From: Bacteroidales bacterium
GTDB lineage: Bacteria > Bacteroidota > Bacteroidia > Bacteroidales > UBA932
Direction: 5' to 3'
DNA length: 49,203 nt
NCBI GenBank assembly: GCA_017442315.1
Contig: JAFRZX010000105.1
Span: 1-49,203 of the forward strand
A program made the position numbers and the translations under genes. This document shows, one piece after another, positions 5,795 to 49,203 of the stretch; position 1 is the stretch's first letter; each line of letters begins with the position of its first letter. Under the pieces are notes generated by a model. That model was given only the letters and a program-made list of their open reading frames with translations. It did not search any database and was not told the DNA's origin.

Positions 5795-6856
5795 TCAATA
5801 CACCTTTATCGGATTCAGTCCTTGCGAATCAAACCTGTCATATAACCTGCCATCCGGCGTGAATACAAATACGTCGCCTGTTGTAAGATAATCAGAACAT
5901 CCCACATAGACATAGCCATCGGATGTAACCGACACCGAATAAGCATTCGGAAGTATTGTCCCATCAGTTACAAAATTCCCCATTCCCGTATTGGTTGCCA
6001 TATCATGAATGAATACTGTCCCCGGAAGCGGATTCCAATCAGCATCATATCCGCCGCATAGTATATACAGCAGACCGTTCTTTCCTCCGGCAATGGAACA
6101 GACTGATTCATATGGCAGATCTGAAAGTTTTCCCGAAACGGTATCCAGAGCCTGTACAAGCGAAGGAACAGCCGCATAATCGCCATAACTGAACACATAG
6201 ACCATATTCCCATCCGAAGATGCCACCACCTTTGCAGGATTGACATTGACAGAGACTATATCCGTACGTTCAAAGCCATCTATGGAAATTACGGACAAGG
6301 TATTATTATAGTCAGGATATGCCATGCCACCTGAATCGGCAACATAAAGTTTTCCTCCTGCAGCATCCAATCCATCCGGATTAGGACCTACCTGAGCAAA
6401 TCTGATAGAATAGTCTTCAGGAGAAATCTGTCCTACGTATCCCTCATAATATGTCACATATACTCTGACGCCATCCGTAGCAAAGCACCTGGGAGACAGA
6501 CGGACACCATTATTTTCTGCATTGATCTGCTTCTTCACCCGAAGTTCCCTATCTGTCACAAATATGGTCTGAGAGCCACTTACTGCTATATATATGTCAT
6601 CACCCACAGATATGATATCTTGCGCCAGATCACCAAGATAACGGGAATTTACAGTATAAAACATATCAGGAAAAAATGTCTTTCTCTGAAGATCATATAT
6701 ACCGACATCAGCATCATTATCCCCCCAGTTACCGTTATTAACTACGAATCTTCCGGACATAAAAGCAATCTCTGCAGACTCTTCATCTTGCTTGCAAGCT
6801 ACCGACAATACAAATAAAACAAGCACATAGAAAAACCGGATACCTCTCATTTCCAT
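5795..6856 (-). CDS. BtuG-like beta-propeller lipoprotein, cobalamin capture
   Basis: A 353-residue protein with a lipoprotein signal peptide (hydrophobic stretch, then LSVAC with Cys about residue 21), followed by repeated short beta-rich segments such as DIYIAVSGSQTIFV, YVTYYEGYVG and VYVGCSDYLTTGDVFVF that fit a seven-bladed YncE/DUF5074-like propeller. In Bacteroides, BtuG is a surface propeller lipoprotein that binds vitamin B12 and hands it to BtuB. Here the gene starts 6 bp after the BtuB-like stop, in the same riboswitch-led transcript, which supports that role. Direct B12-contact residues cannot be identified by eye. The alternative start at Met3 would make a slightly shorter signal peptide. 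Confidence 0.78.
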   Translation of the reverse strand: MEMRGIRFFYVLVLFVLSVACKQDEESAEIAFMSGRFVVNNGNWGDNDADVGIYDLQRKTFFPDMFYTVNSRYLGDLAQDIISVGDDIYIAVSGSQTIFVTDRELRVKKQINAENNGVRLSPRCFATDGVRVYVTYYEGYVGQISPEDYSIRFAQVGPNPDGLDAAGGKLYVADSGGMAYPDYNNTLSVISIDGFERTDIVSVNVNPAKVVASSDGNMVYVFSYGDYAAVPSLVQALDTVSGKLSDLPYESVCSIAGGKNGLLYILCGGYDADWNPLPGTVFIHDMATNTGMGNFVTDGTILPNAYSVSVTSDGYVYVGCSDYLTTGDVFVFTPDGRLYDRFDSQGLNPIKVY

Positions 6857-6862
6857 ATTATA

Positions 6863-8806
6863 TCAATAATTAAAACCGACTCTTATTCTCAATGATCTTC
6901 CCGGCATAGGATAACCCTTTACCAGTTCATGATTAGTACCAGCGAGATTCTGGCCTTCCAAACTGAAGTCAACCCTATATACATGCCGCCTCCCAAAGTT
7001 GAAACTGCGACTGAGACAGATACAATGGTCAGCAAAGCCTTCAAGCATGGTTGAAGGAAGAATCTGGCTCTTGGTATATCTTCTTCCGACAGCACTTACC
7101 CTATAGCTGAGATTGGCCCACCTTGTTTCCAGAATCAGACTGCCGCTGCCGCAATGACGTGGTGTATAAGGAATCTGACTGCCGTAGCTCTTGCTATGCG
7201 GATCCGTCACATCTACGGCATATTGCAAAGACCAGTTGGCTGAAACCTGCATTCTAAGCCATTTCGCCAATTCAAATGTTCCAGATAAGTTGATATCGGA
7301 GCCATACATTACCACTTCTGATACATTCCTCATTTTCCAAATGAACATGGTTGGTACAGCAATTATCTTATCCTTGACAAGATTGCAATATGCGTCCATA
7401 GTCATAGAAATCCTACCCCACCCATGATCTTCTATTCCTGTCAGCCCCAGATTGAACTGATGTGCTGTTTCCGGCTTGAGGGCATCATTTCCTACGCGGG
7501 AATAATACAGATCATTGAATGTAGGCATCCTGAATCCTTTCTTATAGCTTGCTCTAAGATGGTAATCTCGGATGAAATTCCAATTCAATCCTACCATTGG
7601 AGACAAATTGAATCTATGCACCTGTTTATTGGCGTTCTTCAGTTTTTCCGTCATCATCATCCCTGTGAGAAAAGCATTGGCTCTCAATCTTCTGCCGGAA
7701 TACTGACAGGACAGTGCGGTAACCGATGTCAACCTGCAAGGAAACGGGCATTCAGGAATATCGGAGTCCAAGGTGTTGACATAACAATCCTCTGCCAATG
7801 CGAAACGCCACTTCTGTCGCACACCAAACATAATTCTGGAAGATATGGAGTATTCATTCTGAATGTATCTGCTGTCCAGCGGTTGAGGATATACAGGATC
7901 ACAATCAAGATGTCTGTTAAAGGACCTGCTATACCCTATATCGGTATGAAACTTCCATTGCCCGCCATTCCAGACATCATACATGACATTAGATATCACA
8001 GACTTATCCCACAGACGCTCAAATGGGTTCTGCGTATATAGTATTACAGAACCTGGCAATCCTCGCTCACTGTCATGACAGTTCAATTTAAGACGCAGCA
8101 TTCCTCTATTGCCCCAATCAGCACACAAGTCTGCCTCTGCTCCTACTGATGCCACATCACTGTTGACACGTTTTTCTGTCGTGACAAGATCACCATTACG
8201 GAGCTTGAAAGGATAGTTCCCCTTTGAAAACATACCATCGGCAGAAAGCTTCATAACCCAGTTTTTTCCAAGTCTGCACCTCACTGAAGCATAAGGGGCA
8301 AATGCTCCGATTGTGGACCCTGTCATTCCAGCCGTGAACTGCATAGGCTTCTGACTGAAGTCAGCCTTCGCGCTTTCGATTTGAAGCACACCTGCTGAAG
8401 CGAGATGTCTGGCGCTGCAGAATATTTCATCAGAAACACCAAATGCAACAGATACAGATGACACATCATGCAGATTGAATCTGGATATGTCAACCTGACC
8501 ATTCTGAGCATCCGAAATAGGAATACCATCATATATCACAGAGGTGTGGGATGCTCCCATATTCCTGACAGACACAGTCTTAAGTCCACCTATACCTCCA
8601 TAATCCCTTATACTGACCCCGGAAAACTGCTCCAAGACTTCGTAAAGATCATGAGCACCAATATACTTTATCATATCATGCGACATAGCACGGACAGGAG
8701 ACAGACTTACTGCGTCTGCATCCTTATAGGACGACACAGTCGCAACATCAAGAGTGTCGCCATAAACGGCGACACAGCATATTGACATCAATAAATTCAG
8801 GAGCAT
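6863..8806 (-). CDS. btuB: TonB-dependent outer-membrane receptor, BtuB-like
   Basis: A 647-residue precursor: a short signal peptide ending near VAVYG, then a plug domain (about 45-150, with SGVSIRDYGGIGGLKTVSVR and VIYDGIPISDAQNG), then a 22-strand-type barrel rich in alternating aromatic/polar segments. It closes in a C-terminal aromatic residue (GFNY). There is no SusC-type carboxypeptidase-like extension. A cobalamin riboswitch in the leader and a BtuG-like gene downstream make corrinoid import the likely function. The ATG at 8806 is the first start, because an in-frame TGA lies shortly upstream. Confidence 0.85.
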   Translation of the reverse strand: MLLNLLMSICCVAVYGDTLDVATVSSYKDADAVSLSPVRAMSHDMIKYIGAHDLYEVLEQFSGVSIRDYGGIGGLKTVSVRNMGASHTSVIYDGIPISDAQNGQVDISRFNLHDVSSVSVAFGVSDEIFCSARHLASAGVLQIESAKADFSQKPMQFTAGMTGSTIGAFAPYASVRCRLGKNWVMKLSADGMFSKGNYPFKLRNGDLVTTEKRVNSDVASVGAEADLCADWGNRGMLRLKLNCHDSERGLPGSVILYTQNPFERLWDKSVISNVMYDVWNGGQWKFHTDIGYSRSFNRHLDCDPVYPQPLDSRYIQNEYSISSRIMFGVRQKWRFALAEDCYVNTLDSDIPECPFPCRLTSVTALSCQYSGRRLRANAFLTGMMMTEKLKNANKQVHRFNLSPMVGLNWNFIRDYHLRASYKKGFRMPTFNDLYYSRVGNDALKPETAHQFNLGLTGIEDHGWGRISMTMDAYCNLVKDKIIAVPTMFIWKMRNVSEVVMYGSDINLSGTFELAKWLRMQVSANWSLQYAVDVTDPHSKSYGSQIPYTPRHCGSGSLILETRWANLSYRVSAVGRRYTKSQILPSTMLEGFADHCICLSRSFNFGRRHVYRVDFSLEGQNLAGTNHELVKGYPMPGRSLRIRVGFNY

Positions 8807-8851
8807 TTTGCAAACTCATAGAGTGTCTGACCCCGGACACCATCAGTTCAT

Positions 8852-9023
8852 ACCGTCATGGCAGGTCTTCTGACTTATCCAGCTCCGGGCCTTCCCATCG
8901 GCATGACAGTGGCTTGAATCCAGAGCATTATAAAGGACTTACAGCTGCGGGCACAGTTCCGGTCTCTCACCGGATTCCCTTTTCAAGTACACGACCAGAA
9001 AGGCCTGTACTCACCATGACCGT
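8852..9023 (-). promoter_or_regulatory. Cobalamin riboswitch (adenosylcobalamin/B12 element)
   Basis: On the minus strand the RNA carries the hallmark parts of the class in order: a P1 5' arm at 9014-9022, the GGTGAGA...CCGG core, GCTGTGCCCGC-type sequence read here as GTGCCCGCAGCTGTAA, and the B12 box AGAAGACCTGCC near 8861-8872 followed by the closing P1 arm. Seven or more P1 pairs can be formed. The 5' end lies a few bases after a TACATTTG element, so it is the start of the transcript. It would lower btuB/btuG-like expression when B12 is plentiful. A GTGTC/GACAC hairpin at about 8823-8841 before the start codon may be part of the expression platform. No U-run is seen, so translational control is more likely. 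Confidence 0.93.
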
Positions 9024-9025
9024 TA

Positions 9026-9033
9026 CAAATGTA
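9026..9033 (-). promoter_or_regulatory. -7 element for the B12 transcript
   Basis: TACATTTG on the minus strand matches TAnnTTTG and lies 3 bp before the riboswitch P1 arm. It falls in the gap after the stop of the upstream membrane gene (9074). No good -33 TTTG is visible. Confidence 0.5.
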
Positions 9034-9073
9034 GCAAAAATAATTAGAAGATGTTTAAAATTTAAACAGTTTC

Positions 9074-9877
9074 TTATCCCTTCAACCAAGTATGTCTGGC
9101 AACAGAGTAAATGGGGACAAAAGGAAGTATGAGAGGAGTCTTCCTGATGTAGGCCTGAAACTCAGGATCCTGTCCGTATGTTTCATTCTGTCTGAGTTCA
9201 AGTCTGCGTGCACCGCTAAACATCACATAGACTATTCCTATATAACCAAGCGAAGCAATAACCCATTGTCCCGGAGTGCAGCATGCACCGAAACAGATGA
9301 CGAAACTTCCTGTCCACATCAGCACCTCTCCGAAATAATTAGGACAACGGACAATACGGTACAAGCCTTTGTCCACAAATCTTCTCGCATTGATTTTCTT
9401 GGCAGCACTCTTCTGTGCATCCGCCACCATTTCAATCACAACACCAGCTGCAGCCACAACTGCTCCGATCCATGCCCACAGACTGTTTACAGATGCACCT
9501 TCAGCTATATTATACAGATAGAATGTTGCCGGACTGATCTGTCCAACATACAGAAGAGCACACGAAATCCATATCATGAACATAACGAAAACGGGCTTCT
9601 TGACAGTATTTTCCGGCTGATAAAGGATATGCTTATAGGTCGCGGACTTCTTCTCCCTTAGAAAAAGATACAATGCCAGCCTTATGCCATAAATGAACAG
9701 TACACAACACAGCAAAGCAACCGGCAAGGTAATGACATCATGAAACATGACTGCAGTAGCGACACTCAATGCTGAAATAGCCAAACCATATCCGATACTG
9801 AAAAAATAGATGAAATAAATCCATCCCAACGAAGACACGGCAAATGATATTGCCAGAAGAATCCAAAGATATACCAT
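9074..9877 (-). CDS. DUF1295/ICMT-like integral membrane enzyme
   Basis: A 267-residue protein with about six to seven membrane spans. The C-terminal half carries FVDKGLYRIVRCPNYFGEVL, the conserved G-Y/R-x-x-R-x-P-N-Y-x-G/E segment shared by isoprenylcysteine methyltransferase-like and steroid 5-alpha-reductase-like (DUF1295) proteins. A basic end with a proline-rich TPLILPFVP follows. The family has mixed activities (methyl transfer or reductase), and sequence alone does not decide. It lies upstream of the B12 riboswitch but is probably a separate transcript, because the riboswitch promoter follows its stop. Confidence 0.75.
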   Translation of the reverse strand: MVYLWILLAISFAVSSLGWIYFIYFFSIGYGLAISALSVATAVMFHDVITLPVALLCCVLFIYGIRLALYLFLREKKSATYKHILYQPENTVKKPVFVMFMIWISCALLYVGQISPATFYLYNIAEGASVNSLWAWIGAVVAAAGVVIEMVADAQKSAAKKINARRFVDKGLYRIVRCPNYFGEVLMWTGSFVICFGACCTPGQWVIASLGYIGIVYVMFSGARRLELRQNETYGQDPEFQAYIRKTPLILPFVPIYSVARHTWLKG

Positions 9878-10064
9878 AATATTATATTTTTATGGCTGCC
9901 ACCTGACAACCAGCTCAATACGATACAAATTTAATACAAAATACAGGATTTTCCCATAAAATTGGGATCAGGAATCAGTCACAAAAGTATGAGTCAAAGC
10001 ATATATGTCGGCAAGTCTTAACAAGAAGTAGCTCTGCCCCGTTACTGCCCCGTTCTTTACGGGA

Positions 10065-10105
10065 AAATCGCCTAACTCGTTGCTATTCAACTCGTTAGGC
10101 GATTT
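10065..10105 (-). terminator. Hairpin after tRNA-Ser
   Basis: Arms 10065-10076 (AAATCGCCTAAC) and 10094-10105 are exact complements around a 17-nt loop. On the minus strand the second arm is followed by GATTTT, a modest T-rich tail. Its place 4 bp after the tRNA-Ser 3' end suggests a terminator/processing hairpin. Confidence 0.65.
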
Positions 10106-10108
10106 CAG

Positions 10109-10193
10109 CGGAGAGTGAGGGATTCGAACCCCCGGACCCGTTAAGATCAACGGTTTTCAAGACCGCCGCATTCGACCACTCTGCCAACTCTCC
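10109..10193 (-). tRNA. tRNA-Ser (UGA)
   Basis: On the minus strand an 85-nt cloverleaf forms: acceptor GGAGAGT pairing with ACTCTCC, D-loop with GGCAGAGTGGTCGAA, anticodon loop CTTGAAA giving UGA, a long variable arm as expected for serine, and the T-loop GTTCGAATC. The discriminator is G. CCA is not encoded, as usual in Bacteroidota. Confidence 0.97.
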
Positions 10194-10254
10194 AAAATGT
10201 TTACGAAAAACATATCTTTTTCAGATAATAACGCTTTCTTTTCGTAAGGGATTG

Positions 10255-10285
10255 CAAAGGTACGAATATTTTCGTAATCTGCAAA
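10255..10285 (-). promoter_or_regulatory. Full Bacteroidota promoter for tRNA-Ser
   Basis: On the minus strand TTTG (10285-10282), 19 bp, then TACCTTTG (10262-10255) match the -33/-7 consensus exactly. The start would fall near 10248, about 55 bases before the mature tRNA. Confidence 0.75.
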
Positions 10286-10330
10286 TTTATTTGCCGATAT
10301 TTTCAGCATCCCGGTTATGTTATAACCTTG

Positions 10331-10906
10331 CTATTCCTTAGCAAAGAATTTATAATGAAACAGCAAGAGATAGATAGCTCCGCATGTGACACAACTGTCA
10401 GCGAAATTGAATACCGCACCAAAGAAAGTCTGCGGATAATCCATCCAAGGCAATTTATAGTCAAATAACGGGAAGTAGAACATATCCACAACCTGTCCGA
10501 ACATAAAGGCAAACGGTGCGCCCTGCATTACTGTCTCCGGCCATATGAGGCCATAAAAGAAACAATCTATGATATTGCCCATCGCACCTGCTGTAATCAT
10601 TGTCAGGCCCACAAGCACCCCCATAGGAGTATCTTCCCTTCTTGCCAGTTTTGAAATCCACCAGCAAAGTCCGCCGAAAAGAATGATCCTGAACAAAGAG
10701 AGCAGGACCTTTCCCCACACTCCGCCGAAAGCCATACCGAAGGCCATGCCTTTATTCAGTACGAAATGAAGCTTGAACCAATCTCCTATGACATCAATCG
10801 TCTCGCCAAGATCCATATTGGTCTTGACGAGCACTTTGATAATCTGGTCAATTATTACCAGTACCGTTCCTAAGATGAAAAGCCCTTTCCCTTTTGAGAT
10901 TTTCAT
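10331..10906 (-). CDS. lspA: Lipoprotein signal peptidase II
   Basis: This 191-residue inner-membrane aspartyl protease removes signal peptides from diacylglyceryl-prolipoproteins. The two catalytic aspartates sit in the family boxes: D114 in [10 protein letters not shown] and D170 in FNFADSCV. An asparagine-containing box [10 protein letters not shown] lies near residues 48-57. Four membrane spans are visible. It follows the DksA-like gene by 6 bp and ileS further upstream, the usual ileS-dksA-lspA order of Bacteroidota. It presumably processes the several lipoproteins in this window. Confidence 0.96.
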
Positions 10907-10912
10907 ATCGGA

Positions 10913-11323
10913 TTACTTGTTCTTATTCATCATCTCCTTTGCCTCAACCGTAAGTGTGGCATGCGGAACTAGACGAAGTCTCTCCTTAGGGATGAGTTTG
11001 CCAGTCATTCTACATACACCGTAGGTCTTGTTCTCAATCCTGATAAGGGCAGCCTCAAGATTCTGGATAAACTTGTACTGACGCTGTGCCAATGCTCCGG
11101 CCTCTTCCTTTGAAAGAGCAGTAGCACCTTCTTCCATTACCTTGAACGTTGGAGACGTATCCTCGATGTCATTACTTGAATCATGAGTTACAATATCACG
11201 GAGTGTCTTATATTCCTTCTTAGCCTTTGCAAGCATTTCAAGAATAATGGCTTTGAACTCCTGGAGTTCCTCATCACTATAACGGACCTTGAATTCAGGT
11301 GCGTTCTTCATTTCTTCTGCCAT
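10913..11323 (-). CDS. TraR/DksA-like protein with a degenerate zinc finger
   Basis: A 136-residue protein with a long N-terminal helical coiled-coil (about 15-90) and a C-terminal DksA-like finger region (about 100-128). The finger reads YGVCRMTGKLIPKERL and then PHATLTV: only one of the four zinc cysteines is kept. DksA-family proteins bind the secondary channel of RNA polymerase. The Bacteroidota members next to lspA are often cysteine-poor, so this is probably the normal form. An aspartate-rich DSSNDIEDTSP segment stands in the coiled-coil middle. Confidence 0.85.
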   Translation of the reverse strand: MAEEMKNAPEFKVRYSDEELQEFKAIILEMLAKAKKEYKTLRDIVTHDSSNDIEDTSPTFKVMEEGATALSKEEAGALAQRQYKFIQNLEAALIRIENKTYGVCRMTGKLIPKERLRLVPHATLTVEAKEMMNKNK

Positions 11324-40451: not shown

Positions 40452-40525
40452 GGTTCGGTAGCTCAGTTGGATAGAGCAACAGCCTTCTAAGCTGTGGGTC
40501 TTGGGTTCGAATCCCAACCGAATCA
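40452..40525 (+). tRNA. tRNA-Arg (UCU)
   Basis: 74-nt cloverleaf: acceptor GGTTCGG with CCGAATC (one G-U), D-arm GCTCAGTTGGATAGAGC, anticodon loop CTTCTAA giving UCU in an ACAGC/GCTGT stem, T-arm TTGGGTTCGAATCCCAA. Discriminator A, no encoded CCA. It is the left border of the AT-rich accessory segment. Confidence 0.97.
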
Positions 40526-40536
40526 CGAAAAGAAGC

Positions 40537-40568: not shown

Positions 40569-40792
40569 TGTGGTACGGCGGAGCGTCGAAAGTTCGTTTT
40601 CGTAAGCGACGACGGAGCACAAAAAACGGCATTTGCGCCAGCAGAATGCCGATTTGCTTCAGTTTCGATGATGGCCCGCGGAGGAAGGGAAAAAGCCTCG
40701 CAGAGGCTTAATCCCCGAATCACTTTAATCGCCCTCTCAGATGTCTGGGAGGGCGATATTGTTAAGTCTTTCCCCACATTTTCCCCACACAA
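40569..40792 (+). repeat. Hairpin-rich gap with a gapped copy of the tRNA-Arg 3' end
   Basis: No gene is supported here. Three hairpins follow one another: GGCATT/AATGCC near 40627-40650, AAGCCTC/GAGGCTT at 40693-40709, and a 14-bp near-perfect stem at 40728-40757 (ATCGCCCTCTCAGA with its complement, one G-U). At 40710-40723 the sequence AATCCCCGAATCAC matches the tRNA 3' end region at 40510-40526 exactly except for a 3-base gap (AAC). This may be an old attachment-site copy. Confidence 0.5.
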
Positions 40793-41942: not shown

Positions 41943-43625
41943 ATGTCATTCAAAGCCAAAGTTTCTATAGATGCAAATGGTGTGAAAGAAGAACGTTCTG
42001 TATTATTTATACAGACTCTTTTACTAGGGCGAACTAAAAACTATATTGATAAAGGAACTACTCAATCTAATATTGATGGTTATATTGAGTTACTTGATTC
42101 ATCAAATAGAATCAATGGTAAAATTACCGTTCAGGTAAAAACTGTATCTCAAAGGGATGAAGGGCATAATAAGTTCCCTTGTCCTACATCTTTATTTGCA
42201 TATGCTGAAACGACAACTGATAATGTCTTCCTTTTAGCAGTAGACCATTCTCAAGATAAAGTGTTATATAAACATATTTCACCAAAACTTTTAAACGAGA
42301 ATCGAGATAAAGAACAACAAGAAACCATTACGTTACACTTCACGCAGAACGAGGAGTTACGAAGAGATAACATAGATAATGTATTAGAAGATTGGTTAAG
42401 TATATGCAGTAACCGTGTATATTGTTTAACTAATAGTGAAACTATTTTAGAGGAGAATAGTGAATTGAAGTCATATTTGCAAAACATTCCTAAAATGGCA
42501 ACCGATTTAAGGTCTTGCGATATTACAGAGATTCAAAACTTTACAGATGCGTATAACGGGTTATTAGAATCCGATTTTAGATATATTAAAAGTGTGCAGT
42601 TCCCTAATGTGTGGAAACGAGGCATTGCGATATACGCATACACAGATAATACATTAGAATATTCTCTTTATAATATTAATCTGGGAGAACTTGTTGCACC
42701 GATAGTTCAAATGCCCCAATGCTCAATTTTCGAAATAAAAAACAGGCATGACTATGCTTCATTCTCTTGTACTGAAAATCGGCTAAAAGAAAATCCCAGA
42801 TTATATTCTCTTTCCATCATAAAGAAACATGTAGAAGATTTTATCAAAAATCAGAGGATTATCCCATCTGATGAGACCTTTTTGATAGAATATATTCATG
42901 AGTTTATTGAAGCAAATTGGAGGCACTTGCATTTAAAAAAGTATTCTGAACTGAATGTATGTTCATTGATTCAACACTTTCAATCAAAATACGCTTACAT
43001 TGATAAAATGCCAGTACACTTAGTATCAGGTGGAAAATCTATATACTTAAACACAGTGTATAATGCCATTAAGCTTTTGTCTGAAATTGGCTACACGACC
43101 ATTCAATATCCCTATCCGGCAAAAGGTTCTTATGGAAATACGGGAATGGTATATGATTTTTACTCTCCAACAACAGCATTAGAAAAATCACGAATAGTAA
43201 TTTTAAATACGATACGTGCATATCAAAGTTTTATACAATCAGAGTTTCCTTTGTTAGCTGATAAACTTGATGCTTTTTATGGTGGGAATCTTATTTCTGT
43301 ATTGGTAGACTACTCTGATCCAGAACATAAATTTATATTTCACATTCATTATTTCAGAAGTATCCTGCCATCTAATGAAAAAACTATTATAATTGAAGAT
43401 ATTAGTGAGTCAAGAATAATAAAAGAGAATAATTTATCTTCAGCAACAGATTTCTTAAGAAAAGAATCTGTGATGTTTAATGGCCGTGAGTTCTCTTGTT
43501 TCAGAGGAGGTGGACTGAATGATATGACAATCTTGTTCGGGAGATATAATTGTCTAACTTATTTTTACGAGTTGTTAAAAACTCATTTTGATGATTACTT
43601 TAAAAGTCTAACTCACGAAGATTAA
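41943..43625 (+). CDS. DUF4365-like nuclease-fold protein with a long unknown C-terminus
   Basis: 560 residues. The first 160 resemble DUF4365, a PD-(D/E)XK-related domain found in defence loci: D45 in SNIDGYIEL and Q64-x-K66 in ITVQVKT have the expected D...QxK spacing, and FLLAVDHSQDKVLYKHI follows as in the family. The remaining 400 residues show no domain I know; they end in a mixed alpha/beta region with SCFRGGGLNDMTILFGRYN. AT-rich with rare-type codons for this window. It converges with the Hsp70-like gene across a bidirectional terminator. Likely a DNA- or RNA-acting effector; substrate unknown. Confidence 0.7.
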   Translation: MSFKAKVSIDANGVKEERSVLFIQTLLLGRTKNYIDKGTTQSNIDGYIELLDSSNRINGKITVQVKTVSQRDEGHNKFPCPTSLFAYAETTTDNVFLLAVDHSQDKVLYKHISPKLLNENRDKEQQETITLHFTQNEELRRDNIDNVLEDWLSICSNRVYCLTNSETILEENSELKSYLQNIPKMATDLRSCDITEIQNFTDAYNGLLESDFRYIKSVQFPNVWKRGIAIYAYTDNTLEYSLYNINLGELVAPIVQMPQCSIFEIKNRHDYASFSCTENRLKENPRLYSLSIIKKHVEDFIKNQRIIPSDETFLIEYIHEFIEANWRHLHLKKYSELNVCSLIQHFQSKYAYIDKMPVHLVSGGKSIYLNTVYNAIKLLSEIGYTTIQYPYPAKGSYGNTGMVYDFYSPTTALEKSRIVILNTIRAYQSFIQSEFPLLADKLDAFYGGNLISVLVDYSDPEHKFIFHIHYFRSILPSNEKTIIIEDISESRIIKENNLSSATDFLRKESVMFNGREFSCFRGGGLNDMTILFGRYNCLTYFYELLKTHFDDYFKSLTHED

Positions 43626-43763: not shown

Positions 43764-45026
43764 CTACTTCCAAGCATCATAATCATCCATATAACTAAAG
43801 TTACCCATAGGTCTCTGACGTTGAGGTTTCTTTACTTCTTCAGATGCACCACGCATTGACTTGAATATATCCCGGAATGGTGTCAACTTTATATTGTCAT
43901 TCTCCGTACTGATTGCTAAGCCATAAGCGGTAGAAAGAATTGGGCACAAATTTCTTGATTTAATTTCTGAAATATCTTTCACAGCTTTCTGATTCCATTC
44001 ATTAAATGAAATAACCTTAAGTTCTTTAAATCCATCATACACTCTTATAACATTCGGAAAAGTACTACCACCTCCAGAGTAAATCAATGGACGATTCTTT
44101 AAGGCAGCATTTAGCCTCTCTATTTTCAGATTAGTCTGACTTCTGAATTCATTGATCAATTTCTGATGCAAATGATTAGCAATACGTCCAACTTCTTTGG
44201 TAAACTCAATCAGCCTTGTTGCATTGATTTCTATCACGTTCTTAACATTAGAGTCCAGCGAACGGTTATCCTTCACTTTATCTTCTGCACAAGTTAAATA
44301 ATTCAAGCCTTTATTAATTGAAAAATAATCATACACCTGGGGTTTCCCATTGAGTACTGTGAAAAAAGATATATCCGTTGTACCACCTCCAACATCTATC
44401 ATAAGGCTCATACCGTATGATATTTTGCCTTGACTTGTCAATGGCTTCAGACAAGCGTATGCTTCTGGAAAGACTAACAACCCATACTCTTCCTTGATAC
44501 TATAGGAATACTCAACTATCTCGGTGAGTTCTTTTAGCGTCTGTAAAGTAGCATTCAAAAAACTTTTCTTATCATTCTCAAACACATCCTCGACTAATCG
44601 ATAGGCGCTTGCTACAATTGTAGTCGCAATTTTCTTTGCCATAACGATACTACTGCCATCAGCTGGGGCACCCATCTGAATAGTAAACATTTGTCCATAC
44701 TGTTCTTCTAAATCAAAGAGAAGATTAGCCACATAGAGTATTGAATAAAACAATGATTCTTGTTGAGATAAAGCATTTGAAGAGGACGACATACAAAAGG
44801 CACTCTGTTTAAAATACCGAATAATTCTTCCCTTGTAATTATGGGGAAGAAAGCCATAAGTAAGCCTCGTATCCTCATCAATACCTATTACGGTAGGTAA
44901 TGTATATTTAAGTCCGCCCTTAGAATCATTAAACTTCACAAAAGAGTACTCCAGCTCTACTCCCTCCTTTCTCTCTATACATATTTTTGTCTGATGAGTT
45001 CCAAAATCAAGTCCAACCGTAATCAT
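43764..45026 (-). CDS. Hsp70/actin-fold ATPase, short form
   Basis: 420 residues, essentially only the nucleotide-binding domain of the Hsp70/actin superfamily. Phosphate-1 loop VGLDFGTHQTK (4-14), phosphate-2 DVGGGTTD (211-218) and the adenosine loop IYSGGGSTFP (315-324) are present, so ATP binding is likely. There is no canonical substrate-binding domain or lid. The tail (about 395-420) is basic then acidic/aromatic (KKPQRQRPMGNFSYMDDYDAWK split), perhaps a docking peptide. It starts 3 bp after the SNF2 stop, so the two proteins are likely made together and may work as a complex. Confidence 0.88.
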   Translation of the reverse strand: MITVGLDFGTHQTKICIERKEGVELEYSFVKFNDSKGGLKYTLPTVIGIDEDTRLTYGFLPHNYKGRIIRYFKQSAFCMSSSSNALSQQESLFYSILYVANLLFDLEEQYGQMFTIQMGAPADGSSIVMAKKIATTIVASAYRLVEDVFENDKKSFLNATLQTLKELTEIVEYSYSIKEEYGLLVFPEAYACLKPLTSQGKISYGMSLMIDVGGGTTDISFFTVLNGKPQVYDYFSINKGLNYLTCAEDKVKDNRSLDSNVKNVIEINATRLIEFTKEVGRIANHLHQKLINEFRSQTNLKIERLNAALKNRPLIYSGGGSTFPNVIRVYDGFKELKVISFNEWNQKAVKDISEIKSRNLCPILSTAYGLAISTENDNIKLTPFRDIFKSMRGASEEVKKPQRQRPMGNFSYMDDYDAWK

Positions 45027-45029
45027 ATG

Positions 45030-48000
45030 CTATAAAATTGATATGTAATTCAGAGATATTATCTCATCTTCAATAGTGATTAACGAATCTTCTTTAAGCT
45101 GGGCTATCTTTTCAGCCTTCTCTCTTGCTTCCGTTTGCAGGTCAGATTTTCTCAAACGCAAAGCTCCTTCCACACCTCGACGTTCCTTGGCATCAAGAAA
45201 ACCATATTGAAGAGATAGTTCATAGTCTTTAATTTCGTTATTTAATTTTGTTATACGAACATCATAATACTCTTCCGTCTGCTGTATATTTCTATTTCTA
45301 TCACTTTCGACTTGCTTACGTATTTCCTGTAAACGACGGGATTTTTCTACATTTAACAATTCGGCAAAATCATATCGCATATCTTGAATCATTTCGCTAT
45401 CAGTAGCTAATTGAGTAAGATTAGATTCCTTTCCGGCAACTTGAGAACGAGCAAAAATGCGATCCGTTAAACTTGCATCAGACATTGCAGCCCTTTCATT
45501 GACATCAAAGACTAGAGGATAAAGTGTTTCTGTGGTTTTAGGGACTCCTAAAACCTTTCTACATACTGCAATCTTATAGACAGCCATATAATACGACTTA
45601 CCTGTGCGCAATAAGTCATCAGAATCAAGTGCATAGCTGAAGGAGTTTTGCGATATCTTATCTTTCCTTTGGAAATAATTCAGACATGCTTGAATTATTG
45701 GATGATAGATGTTTAAATACATCATTTTCGAGTTATCGTATGCCTTTTGCTGATTAAAGGTCAACAGAAATTCCTGTTTATCATCAATCTCTCGCTTAAA
45801 TCTATTGAATAATACATCATTCTCATCCCCCAGCGGTTGATACTGAGTAAGAAAATTTTGTAATACTCTAGGATTACTAACAGAGATAGAAAAGCGATAT
45901 ATACCATCTCCAACACTTGCTAATGAACAGGTTGGCATTTCTACTCGAATAACTGATTCAAGATAATTACGAAGTTCAACTTCAGTCACATATGAATTAA
46001 TTGCCAACATTCTATTAATCTCATCCTGGAAATAGGCATCGTTTGTCAAAGCATTATTAAGACCTTCTTTTAAATGCTGTATATTCTCTTCCTCATTAGC
46101 AATCGCACGTTCAACCTGTGCTATTTTCACACGCCTTTCTTCCTCCGTCAAACGACTGATGAACAGTTCTCGTTCTAAATTATTGTAAACTTCTTGAATT
46201 GTATGGGACCCTCCTTTCTCTAAAGGGGCATCAAGAATAGCTTCCATATCTCCTATAGTTCCTCTGAAGATTCCTATTCGGTCTAACAATCTCACGTATA
46301 TATCTTCTTGAATAGAGTCGGACACTATCATATTATATATATTCACCACAGGAGATTTCTGTCCAAACCTATCGATACGACCAATCCTTTGTTCTACAAC
46401 CATCGGATTCCATGGCAAATCATAATTAACCATAGAGTTACAGAACTGCATATCAAGTCCCTCACTACCAACCTCTGAAGACAATAGAATATGAGCATTG
46501 TCATTATTTTTAAACTCATCGAGAATATCTGCTCGGTTGTCAACCTGACCATGAATAATAAGACACCCTAACCCTCTCTTATTCAACCTCAACTTCAGAT
46601 ATTTAAGCGTTTTTCGAAATAGTGCGAATACAACTATTTTCTTTGTTCCATGTTTAAAAACCTCATCAATAATCTTTATCAGTTCATCAAATTTAGCATC
46701 TTCAAAGCCCTCATATAAATCAATTCCCTGATCCAGATTATCTTCTGTATTCATATAAGCAAATACACTACTTGCGACTTGCCTCTTTTTCTGAACTAAG
46801 CCCAATGCTCCCCCTGGGGTCATCACCTCTTCGCCCCATTCATCAGTATACGAATTATCATCAATATATTGTTCTATAACCTCATCAAAGAACCTTCTTT
46901 CTTCCTCGTTCAATATAATCTTTCTTGGATGCGGCTTACGTTCTGCCTGTGAAAGATCTCTCGTCACATCCCTCTTTCTTGTCCTGGAAAAGACAGTATT
47001 CATGACACTCATAGACGATATCAGATACTGAAGACGAGCTCTATTTTTATGCGTATCATCTGAATTCAACAAAGAGATTATTTCCTGATACAACGGATCC
47101 ACAGCAAAGGTTTCACCAATTGTAGTCTCTTTTTCCATCACAGTTATCTCATTTATCGCAAATCTAGTAACAATCTTTGCACTTTCTAATTGCCCTGCAA
47201 TAAGAGATAGCGGTACGTTATTATTCAAATCAGTTAATGCTTCTACAAAAGGGCGATTCTCCTGAAGGCGGTTTTCAAAGATCTGGTAATTATAATATCT
47301 TGTTGAATCCAGTAAATGAAGGAGGTTATATAGATTCTCGGTACTGATCATTACCGGAGTCGCAGTTAAAAAAACTGCTGCATTAGTCCTATCCATAACA
47401 ACTTCTGCCCCTCTAAAAGTCTGAGTCGTCTTATTTCTCATCTTGTGGGCCTCATCACATAGTACGAGACTAAATTTGAAAGAACTCTCTTGAAGGAAAT
47501 CTACAAGATTGGCAGGGCATTTCTTCGAAGGCTTATTCTCCTCTTCTTTCTTACGCATTCGGATCTTCTCATAATTCACGATAGCCCGTACAGGCACTCT
47601 TGAATCAGCCATATCATTTATAAGATCCTTTTGAGTCTCATAGATCTTAAACGATAAGCCAAACTTAAAAGAAAGTTCGTCTTTCCATTTCTTCTGCAAA
47701 GATTTTGGACATACAATCAGAACGTGCTGCAGTTCTTTTCTTGCTTTTAACTCCAACATTATATGACCTGCCTCAATAGTCTTTCCCAAGCCCACCTCAT
47801 CTGCGACGAGCAGTCGTCTGTTCGGTGAATTCAGAAACTTCAACAGAGGTTTAAACTGATATGCACGAAAAAGTGTTTTTGAAGCTTTCAGAGAAGATAT
47901 TGTGCTGTTATTTTTGCTTTTTATTTTAAATGTCGTATTCTTCTTCGAGAAATCCGAGTATGAGCCAAATATTCCATTTATACATCTTTCATAAGGATCG

Positions 48001-48170
48001 GCAATATCACAATCGGGAATCAAATTAACCTCCAATTCATCGGATATATATCCCTCCCAACTAACTTTGTACAATTGTCTTCCTCTACGTGGAGGCATTA
48101 CCTCCACAACAGTTCCATGATTACCAGATTCTGGTTTTACAACTCTGCTACCGATTGAAAACTTACTCAT
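45030..48170 (-). CDS. SNF2-family helicase/translocase, RapA-like
   Basis: 1046 residues. An SH3/chromo-like N-terminus (about 5-50; GSRVVKPESGNHGTVVEV) precedes a SNF2 motor: Walker A DEVGLGKT (124-131), DEAH (239-242), LTATP (268-272), and motif VI QRIGRIDRFGQ (594-604). The C-terminal 400 residues are helical with a long coiled coil (about 930-1025). The layout is like RapA and like helicases of defence islands such as DISARM DrmD, but no DUF1998 or methyltransferase partner is present. First gene of the SNF2-Hsp70 operon. Base composition AT-rich. Confidence 0.9.
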   Translation of the reverse strand: MSKFSIGSRVVKPESGNHGTVVEVMPPRRGRQLYKVSWEGYISDELEVNLIPDCDIADPYERCINGIFGSYSDFSKKNTTFKIKSKNNSTISSLKASKTLFRAYQFKPLLKFLNSPNRRLLVADEVGLGKTIEAGHIMLELKARKELQHVLIVCPKSLQKKWKDELSFKFGLSFKIYETQKDLINDMADSRVPVRAIVNYEKIRMRKKEEENKPSKKCPANLVDFLQESSFKFSLVLCDEAHKMRNKTTQTFRGAEVVMDRTNAAVFLTATPVMISTENLYNLLHLLDSTRYYNYQIFENRLQENRPFVEALTDLNNNVPLSLIAGQLESAKIVTRFAINEITVMEKETTIGETFAVDPLYQEIISLLNSDDTHKNRARLQYLISSMSVMNTVFSRTRKRDVTRDLSQAERKPHPRKIILNEEERRFFDEVIEQYIDDNSYTDEWGEEVMTPGGALGLVQKKRQVASSVFAYMNTEDNLDQGIDLYEGFEDAKFDELIKIIDEVFKHGTKKIVVFALFRKTLKYLKLRLNKRGLGCLIIHGQVDNRADILDEFKNNDNAHILLSSEVGSEGLDMQFCNSMVNYDLPWNPMVVEQRIGRIDRFGQKSPVVNIYNMIVSDSIQEDIYVRLLDRIGIFRGTIGDMEAILDAPLEKGGSHTIQEVYNNLERELFISRLTEEERRVKIAQVERAIANEEENIQHLKEGLNNALTNDAYFQDEINRMLAINSYVTEVELRNYLESVIRVEMPTCSLASVGDGIYRFSISVSNPRVLQNFLTQYQPLGDENDVLFNRFKREIDDKQEFLLTFNQQKAYDNSKMMYLNIYHPIIQACLNYFQRKDKISQNSFSYALDSDDLLRTGKSYYMAVYKIAVCRKVLGVPKTTETLYPLVFDVNERAAMSDASLTDRIFARSQVAGKESNLTQLATDSEMIQDMRYDFAELLNVEKSRRLQEIRKQVESDRNRNIQQTEEYYDVRITKLNNEIKDYELSLQYGFLDAKERRGVEGALRLRKSDLQTEAREKAEKIAQLKEDSLITIEDEIISLNYISIL

Positions 48171-48999: not shown

Positions 49000-49025
49000 C
49001 TTTTCATCTCTTGCTGAATGAAACA

Positions 49026-49203
49026 TCAACGGTTCAGGAGCCGTTGGATGTCGGACAGGCGGTAGCGTTTCTTGCCGCCGACGGTTAGCGGTACGCGGTA
49101 GCCTCATTTCTCCCACCGCCATAGGGTGGCAGATGCGACCTCCAGCATTTCCATAACTTTGGCACGACTCAGATAGAGTTCCGCCCTTGATTCAGCAACC
49201 GAC
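49026..49203 (-). pseudogene. Excisionase-type helix-turn-helix gene, broken and cut by window edge
   Basis: The minus strand reads from the right edge as a short HTH protein of the MerR/excisionase type used by Bacteroidales mobile elements: LSRAKVMEMLEVASATLWRW, then EK, a TGA stop (49104-49106), then GYRVPLTVGGKKRYRLSD and IQRLLNR to the TGA at 49026-49028. The protein pattern continues in frame across the stop, so a single-base change of a sense codon (for example CGA or AGA) is the simplest cause. The 5' end lies outside. Confidence 0.75.

What the first reader, a model, noticed from the sequence alone, without database searches (positions are those of the whole stretch)
45030..48170. 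SNF2 translocase and lid-less Hsp70 ATPase in one operon
Seen: two large frames 3 bp apart, a complete SNF2 motor (Walker A, DEAH, motif VI) with an SH3-like N-terminus and long coiled coil, followed by an Hsp70-fold ATPase with no substrate-binding domain (Hsp70-like gene at 43764-45026). Known: SNF2 motors occur in defence systems such as DISARM and Zorya, but those carry other partners. Inference: an ATP-driven two-component machine that senses or remodels nucleic acid, perhaps antiviral. I do not recall a named system with just these two parts.
Basis: partly seen in the sequence, partly recalled or inferred. Interest (0 to 1): 0.75.

Follow-up and report, generated by a model that had tools for sequence, protein, structure and literature searches.

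The report
SNF2 motor paired with actin-fold ATPase
Two neighbouring genes, a DNA-translocating motor and a small ATPase of the actin/Hsp70 fold, form a conserved pair that recurs beside bacterial antiviral genes and looks like an unnamed defence module.

Summary
A RapA/DrmD-type SNF2 translocase (45030-48170, -) is followed 3 bp later by an ATPase of the ASKHA (actin/Hsp70) fold (43764-45026, -), on a low-GC island beside a tRNA-Arg gene. "Lid-less Hsp70" is too specific: the protein is ASKHA, marginally nearer MreB/ParM. The pair is a real module. All 16 other family members found with the ATPase as query lie directly behind such an SNF2, and in 299 genomes of the family both genes occur in the same 4. 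Plasmids of cyanobacteria and alphaproteobacteria carry it too. Sister SNF2s carry a sacsin/Hsp90-type GHKL ATPase with an HNH-like tail instead. The 24 coupled SNF2s form one group apart from RapA and a DrmD fragment. The pair is rare, but at least 10 of 18 loci lie near strong matches to known defence genes (BREX, type I/III restriction, Gabija), and once the ASKHA gene is fused to Septu PtuA beside PtuB. I found no name for it in PADLOC 2.0.0, NCBIfam, Pfam or ten literature searches. Most likely it is an SNF2 sensor/translocase with an ATP-switched adaptor. The mechanism is inferred and the function untested.

The parts
45030..48170 (-). RapA/DrmD-type SNF2 translocase, 1046 aa, first gene of the pair
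   Evidence: ORF; Pfam Helicase_C 5e-22, SNF2-rel_dom 1.3e-19; PADLOC DrmD 1e-123; NCBIfam DrmD 333.6 bits, cut-off 610; motifs conserved
43764..45026 (-). ASKHA (actin/Hsp70-fold) ATPase, 420 aa, second gene of the pair
   Evidence: ORF; P1, P2 and adenosine motifs; family profile nearest MreB, 6e-4
40452..40526 (+). tRNA-Arg (tct) at the edge of the low-GC island
   Evidence: GC 0.449 before, 0.364 after
41943..43625 (+). Convergent neighbour with a DUF4365 domain, 560 aa; island cargo, not shown to belong to the pair
   Evidence: Pfam 2.5e-6 above cut-off; PADLOC Aga_REase-PNTD1-PNTD2 1.3e-7

Best explanation
A horizontally transferred, unnamed two-gene antiviral module. Shown: the SNF2 is a RapA-type motor with intact ATPase motifs; its partner is an ASKHA ATPase with intact motifs; the genes are tightly spaced or overlapping, co-occur and have diverged in step; the pair often lies beside defence genes; in one genome the partner is fused to a Septu PtuA ATPase next to a PtuB HNH gene; sister SNF2s carry a GHKL ATPase, and all five of those read end in an HNH-like segment. 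Inferred: the SNF2 binds and tracks along invading duplex DNA, or acts on stalled transcription or replication complexes; its state is read by the partner, an ATP-switched adaptor between motor and effector. Where an HNH or PtuA-PtuB is attached the output is cleavage. In the window, where no nuclease is visible, the output is either motor action itself (displacing phage protein complexes) or recruitment of effectors encoded elsewhere.
For: Pairing: 16 of 16 other family members found with the ASKHA query have the SNF2 directly upstream; same 4 of 299 family genomes from either side; gaps -8 to +14 bp in 22 loci; distance correlation r = 0.95 over 18 pairs. Wide spread: cyanobacterial and alphaproteobacterial plasmids. 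One SNF2 group, support 100/97, 98 with a DrmD fragment added. Defence context: at least 10 of 18 loci with PADLOC E <= 1e-40 in the flank. Effector links: ASKHA-PtuA fusion 1.9e-79 and PtuB 9.9e-73; GHKL partners with TmtA/sacsin matches and HNH-like tails (by eye).
Against: The window itself shows no established defence gene near the pair, and its contig ends 1 kb upstream of the SNF2. Flank genes for the PADLOC scans were picked by eye and five of 18 loci were not scanned, so no enrichment was measured. Several loci are close copies (L004-L007; L001-L002; L069-L070). The PtuA fusion is a single case. Outside the group, L119 and L090 have a GHKL gene two genes away and L131 an Hsp70-like gene 3.6 kb away.
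Confidence: 0.5

Rival explanations
1. An accessory of neighbouring restriction or BREX systems: the pair does not defend on its own but remodels DNA for, or loads and activates, the HsdR, BREX or type III enzymes beside it.
For: Pair next to HsdR in L068 and L069, BrxL in L007, BrxA-BrxB-BrxC-PglX in L080, type III enzymes in L003 and L067; a sister SNF2-GHKL pair directly behind PglX-PglZ in L100.
Against: The neighbouring system differs from locus to locus, and several loci (window, L001, L004) show none of these in the genes scanned.
Confidence: 0.25
2. A RapA-like transcription or repair factor: the SNF2 recycles RNA polymerase or repairs DNA, with the ATPase as co-factor, and lies in islands only as accessory cargo.
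For: Architecture follows RapA; best solved-structure match is RapA, 7.5e-30.
Against: Present in only 4 of 299 genomes of the family, on a low-GC island, in a group apart from RapA, and often beside defence genes.
Confidence: 0.07
3. A maintenance device of mobile elements: the ASKHA protein acts like ParM as a segregation filament and the SNF2 moves or clears the DNA.
For: Nearest named profiles include ParM, MreB and Alp7A; the pair occurs on plasmids and islands.
Against: The Sphingobium, Ensifer and Cyanobacterium plasmids carry their own ParA-type genes (the Ensifer one has the GHKL pair); the pair is mostly on contigs with chromosomal or defence neighbours; one ASKHA is fused to PtuA.
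Confidence: 0.08

Closest known systems
DISARM DrmD (SNF2 helicase)
   Same: Same RapA-like SNF2 superfamily; best PADLOC match of the window SNF2, 1e-123.
   Different: Scores 333.6 bits against a DrmD cut-off of 610, lies outside the branch with a DrmD fragment, no DrmA/B/C seen among scanned flanks, and has an ASKHA partner.
BREX BrxHII and DUF499-system helicases
   Same: Tudor + SNF2 + RapA-type C-terminus (PMC12839542, passages); some pairs lie beside BREX genes.
   Different: Different branch (L089 and L093, with DUF499 neighbours, lie outside the group); two-gene unit; no mention of an Hsp70-, actin-, sacsin- or GHKL-type partner was found in that paper's text.
Septu (PtuA-PtuB)
   Same: L067: ASKHA fused to a PtuA-type ATPase, PtuB next.
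   Different: SNF2 and ASKHA are not Septu parts in the PADLOC models matched, and the window has neither PtuA nor PtuB.
TmtA (recalled as Tiamat), sacsin-type GHKL ATPase
   Same: The GHKL partners of sister SNF2s match TmtA models, 2.1e-75 to 1.1e-51 at best.
   Different: Those are coupled to an SNF2 and end in an HNH-like segment; the window has an ASKHA partner instead.
CoCoNuT CnuD Hsp70-like protein
   Same: Another Hsp70-like ATPase in a predicted defence operon (PMC11090510, passages).
   Different: CnuD has NBD and SBD, degenerate Walker A-like motifs and a McrBC partner by that paper; here no SBD, intact motifs and an SNF2 partner.

Membership tests
DISARM | SNF2 protein over the NCBIfam DrmD cut-off (610 bits) | tested here: not met
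   333.6 bits; L001 353 and L083 429.4 bits
DISARM | DrmA, DrmB, DrmC and a methyltransferase beside it (recalled) | tested here: inconclusive
   None among the PADLOC-scanned flank genes as best match, but the contig ends 1 kb upstream and only chosen flanks were scanned
BREX | BrxC/PglY, PglX and PglZ core in the same locus (recalled) | tested here: inconclusive
   Not among the five window proteins scanned; upstream part of the island is not held. Of 18 ASKHA loci, L080 has BrxA/B/C and PglX, L007 and L118 have BrxL
Septu | PtuA ATPase plus PtuB HNH nuclease | tested here: not met
   Neither in the window pair; met only in L067
Hsp70 chaperones | HSP70 family profile and C-terminal substrate-binding domain | tested here: not met
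   No HSP70 model at E <= 0.1; 420 aa with the last ASKHA motif near residue 370
ASKHA (actin/Hsp70/sugar kinase) superfamily | Phosphate-1, phosphate-2 and adenosine motifs in order | tested here: met
   Present in 18 of 18 aligned members, with drift in the distant ones; fold not modelled
Hma, Zorya and Dpd SNF2 systems | SNF2 nearest to HmaA, ZorD or DpdE | tested here: not met
   HmaA 2.1e-48, DpdE 2.4e-42, ZorD 7.2e-31 against DrmD 1e-123
PDC-M61 (PADLOC candidate) | Both M61A and M61B | tested here: not met
   M61B only 15.1 bits; M61A (482 positions) absent from the whole own genome at E <= 10
Antiviral defence systems in general | Protects cells against phage or plasmids | not testable with these tools
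   Context only: at least 10 of 18 loci near strong defence hits

The most novel reading that the evidence does not exclude
One group of RapA-type SNF2 motors forms an unrecognised, cross-phylum family of two-ATPase immune machines. Its second ATPase is exchangeable between the actin/Hsp70 fold (ASKHA) and the Hsp90/sacsin fold (GHKL), and passes the motor's signal to swappable effectors (PtuA-PtuB, HNH tails, others) or acts through the motor alone.
Probability: 0.45. Interest if true: 0.75.

Novelty: new variant of a known kind. Interest (0 to 1): 0.6.

Why it matters
RapA-type SNF2 motors turn up in many defence systems, and what they sense and how they trigger effectors is open. A minimal motor-plus-switch pair, with a natural fusion to Septu PtuA and a parallel GHKL version, would be a small, tractable system for testing how an SNF2 translocase signals infection, and would add an actin/Hsp70-fold ATPase to the signalling parts of bacterial immunity.

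Tried and rejected
Lid-less Hsp70 as such: rejected; profile evidence puts the protein in ASKHA generally and marginally nearest MreB/ParM. DISARM membership: rejected on score and tree. PDC-M61: rejected; its B model rang in 104 of 198 phylum genomes with weak hits that I took for FtsA and DnaK by size. A fixed three-gene operon: rejected; the gene after the ASKHA gene differs from locus to locus or is missing, as in the window. PDLC00287 (the PtuA model best matching the L067 fusion) rang in 0 of 148 phylum genomes and in 0 of 14 controls at E <= 1e-60, so it says nothing about absence. tblastn of plasmids with the window's ASKHA protein and with L080's found nothing; distant partners came first through the SNF2 and were then found again with L083 and L088 as queries.

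Results against or outside the reading. Three phage-collection or IMG/VR proteins of about 310 aa (L065, L066, L102) match the ASKHA profile weakly (E 5e-6 to 2e-11) with no SNF2 of this group in the stretch; I took them for ParM-like proteins and did not count them. A short remnant on a Rippkaea plasmid (L099) has no SNF2 and was not counted. In one search, 29 of the 31 matching genomes gave only marginal hits (E 3.5e-5 or worse) in frames of 426-483 aa; I dropped them as FtsA by length and score without reading their neighbourhoods. Of 20 SNF2 loci outside the group none shows an ASKHA or GHKL gene directly beside it, but L119 and L090 have a GHKL gene two genes away and L131 an Hsp70-like gene 3.6 kb away; L129's contig holds no neighbour gene and L131's ends in the SNF2. 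The score gap between partnered and other SNF2s (350 bits or more against 235 or less) is partly by construction, because the profile was made from ten ASKHA-linked sequences. The distance correlation is inflated by shared ancestry. RapA, L117 and L084 are long branches. Left out of the first tree: L116, L117, L090, L101, L131; of the second: L116, L090, L101, L131, L125.

Full report
Observation. The two frames exist as described: SNF2, 1046 aa, 45030-48170 (-), and a 420-aa ATPase, 43764-45026 (-), with 3 bp between them. The SNF2 matches Helicase_C and SNF2-rel_dom in Pfam, DrmD in PADLOC at 1e-123 and DrmD in NCBIfam at 333.6 bits, under the 610-bit cut-off; its best solved-structure match is RapA, 7.5e-30. 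Its helicase motifs are conserved over ten aligned sequences. The RapA model covers residues 3-980 of relative L001, so the SH3-like N-terminus and the coiled coil are probably parts of an ordinary RapA-type architecture, as described for BrxHII in passages of PMC12839542.

The partner. The 420-aa protein carries the three ASKHA nucleotide-binding motifs, kept in 18 of 18 aligned family members with drift in the distant ones. It matches no HSP70 model at E <= 0.1. As a family profile its best solved-structure matches are MreB (6e-4), then an actin-family protein (0.03), BiP (0.12) and ParM (0.25). I therefore call it an ASKHA ATPase; no structure could be predicted. Longer relatives (499-613 aa) carry an insert after about residue 66, charged and coiled-coil-like by eye, that the window's closest relatives lack.

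Genomic place. GC is 0.449 up to the end of a tRNA-Arg gene and 0.364 after it. Of 6 congener stretches fetched, 4 have the same DUF368 gene followed by tRNA-Arg. In the two of these with 11 kb of sequence the genes that follow differ from the window's; L138 ends in a fragment 95% identical over 42 residues to the window's 109-aa protein. A 9-bp repeat of the tRNA end recurs at 40715, followed by sequence like that directly after the tRNA in L137 and L138. This fits an integration hot spot. The window is a whole contig (one search places it from base 1 to 49203), so what lies upstream of the SNF2 beyond 1 kb is not known. Island neighbours are a DUF4365 gene and two small genes without a significant match.

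Conservation of the pair. Family members found with the ASKHA protein or its alignment: 9 loci in genome contigs, 3 of 298 other genomes in the family, 1 of 294 others in the order (at E 6.7e-13; the remaining 29 matches there were marginal), 2 of 394 others in the phylum, 1 IMG/VR contig. All 16 have an SNF2 of this type immediately upstream on the same strand; in L070 the ASKHA gene is split between two contigs. In the reverse direction, the same 299 family genomes searched with the SNF2 alignment at E <= 1e-40 gave exactly the same 4 genomes, window included (chance of an identical set of 4, 3e-9). A further pair, L118, came through the DrmD model. Gaps between the genes range from -8 to +14 bp in 22 loci (L082, where the ATPase gene comes first, is not among them). 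Pairwise distances of the two proteins correlate with r = 0.95 over 18 pairs (permutation p = 5e-5, the floor of 20,000 permutations).

Beyond Bacteroidota. A tblastn of plasmids with the SNF2 matched 77 records; I looked at 15. Of the ten top rows six have the ASKHA partner adjacent: Shinella, Cyanobacterium, Leptolyngbya (partner upstream), Sphingobium twice, Aminobacter. The Sphingobium match is weak by the first profile (0.001) but 6e-24 from the Aminobacter protein. Four have a GHKL ATPase: Ensifer, two Rhizobium and the archaeon Methanomethylovorans (the second Rhizobium protein is 84% identical to the first). Ensifer and Methanomethylovorans match TmtA and sacsin models. Five lower rows have neither partner adjacent. 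tblastn with two plasmid ASKHA proteins found 7 records in all, six with the SNF2 and one remnant. Of 4 phage-collection records I read 3, all unannotated faecal scaffolds: L100 has SNF2-GHKL directly behind PglX-PglZ; L104 has an SNF2, cut by the scaffold end, behind PglZ; L101 a cut SNF2 downstream of a type III methyltransferase. All five GHKL partners end in an HNH-like segment by eye; the only model support is a 2.7e-6 match of L085 to a type IV restriction model.

Tree. Among 41 SNF2 rows the 24 partnered ones (19 ASKHA, 5 GHKL) are one side of a branch with support 100/97, and 98 (SH-aLRT) when a motor fragment of a DrmD over the NCBIfam cut-off is included. ASKHA, GHKL and other labels need 3 changes against a minimum of 2. 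Whether GHKL or ASKHA came first is not resolved.

Defence context. Strong PADLOC matches (E <= 1e-40) lie in the fetched flanks of at least 10 of 18 ASKHA loci (window, L001-L009, L064, L067-L070, L079, L080, L118): L067 type III methyltransferase plus the PtuA/PtuB parts, L080 BrxA/B/C and PglX; L003 type III methyltransferase, L007 BrxL, L009 type I methyltransferase-specificity protein and PDC-M55; L068 and L069 HsdR, L070 GajA, L079 a DpdF-like helicase, L118 BrxL and HsdR, with GajB beside GajA in L070. The genes scanned were picked by eye. Window, L001 and L004 gave only weak hits; L002, L005, L006, L008 and L064 were not scanned. So this is a lower bound, not a measured enrichment. As a small control, ten large genes from window 1-40 kb gave one hit at that level, a GlgB model that PADLOC lists among possible alternative Cas3 genes, and weak LeoA/LeoBC/mad8 hits for one protein.

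Clues to mechanism. In L067 the ASKHA gene is fused to a PtuA-type ATPase (1.9e-79) and overlaps a PtuB gene (9.9e-73) by 4 bp. The gene after the ASKHA gene is otherwise variable: TerB in L118, a possible PD-(D/E)XK protein in L068 (by eye; no Pfam match), a protein with one hydrophobic segment in L008, small proteins, or none, as in the window. From this I infer a motor (SNF2) plus ATP-switched adaptor (ASKHA or GHKL) that can be joined to different effectors. What the motor senses, and what the output is where no nuclease is attached, is not known.

Novelty. No model matching the ASKHA partner above its cut-off was found in Pfam or NCBIfam, and PADLOC 2.0.0 gave at most 17.4 bits, apart from the PtuA part of L067 and a coiled-coil match of L082. 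Ten full-text searches listed no paper that I recognised as describing the pair. Of five papers I read passages only (PMC11090510, PMC12839542, PMC3710099, PMC12458937, PMC10853773); all others I saw only as search listings. Subscription papers, most preprints and current DefenseFinder models were not covered. RapA-type SNF2s in defence are known; the ASKHA coupling appears new, hence 'new variant of a known kind'.

Noticed in passing
L067:5789-12599 (-): SNF2 + ASKHA-PtuA fusion + PtuB HNH in one overlapping run, with a type III methyltransferase and a helicase-like gene downstream.
   Followed up: partly
L084:7983-14467, L085:5560-11880, L086:5692-12032, L094:5695-12031, L100:5179-11964: Sister SNF2s coupled, at gaps of 0-6 bp, to a sacsin/Hsp90-type GHKL ATPase with an HNH-like tail; one is archaeal and one lies behind PglX-PglZ.
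   Followed up: partly
window 40518-40526 and 40715-40723: Direct repeat of the tRNA-Arg 3' end (CCGAATCAC) bracketing about 190 bp; the second copy is followed by what lies directly after the tRNA in two congeners, like a remnant of an earlier integration.
   Followed up: partly
window 49020-49203 (-): By eye, the contig end encodes on the minus strand a degraded helix-turn-helix (excisionase-like) protein of the kind found in Bacteroidota mobile elements; not searched.
   Followed up: no
L064:3-2217 and 6843-11236: The IMG/VR copy of the pair lies a few kb behind what look by eye like phage terminase genes, so the pair may also travel on a prophage.
   Followed up: no
L137:1748-10998: A congener has different accessory genes at the same tRNA-Arg site, among them an AAA/SMC-like protein and a helicase-like protein (by eye).
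   Followed up: no
L003:5884-6762 and L079:12717-13637: HNH proteins sit beside the pair: an HNH protein with a sub-threshold EVE match just upstream of the SNF2 in L003, and an HNH_2 protein next to it in L079.
   Followed up: no
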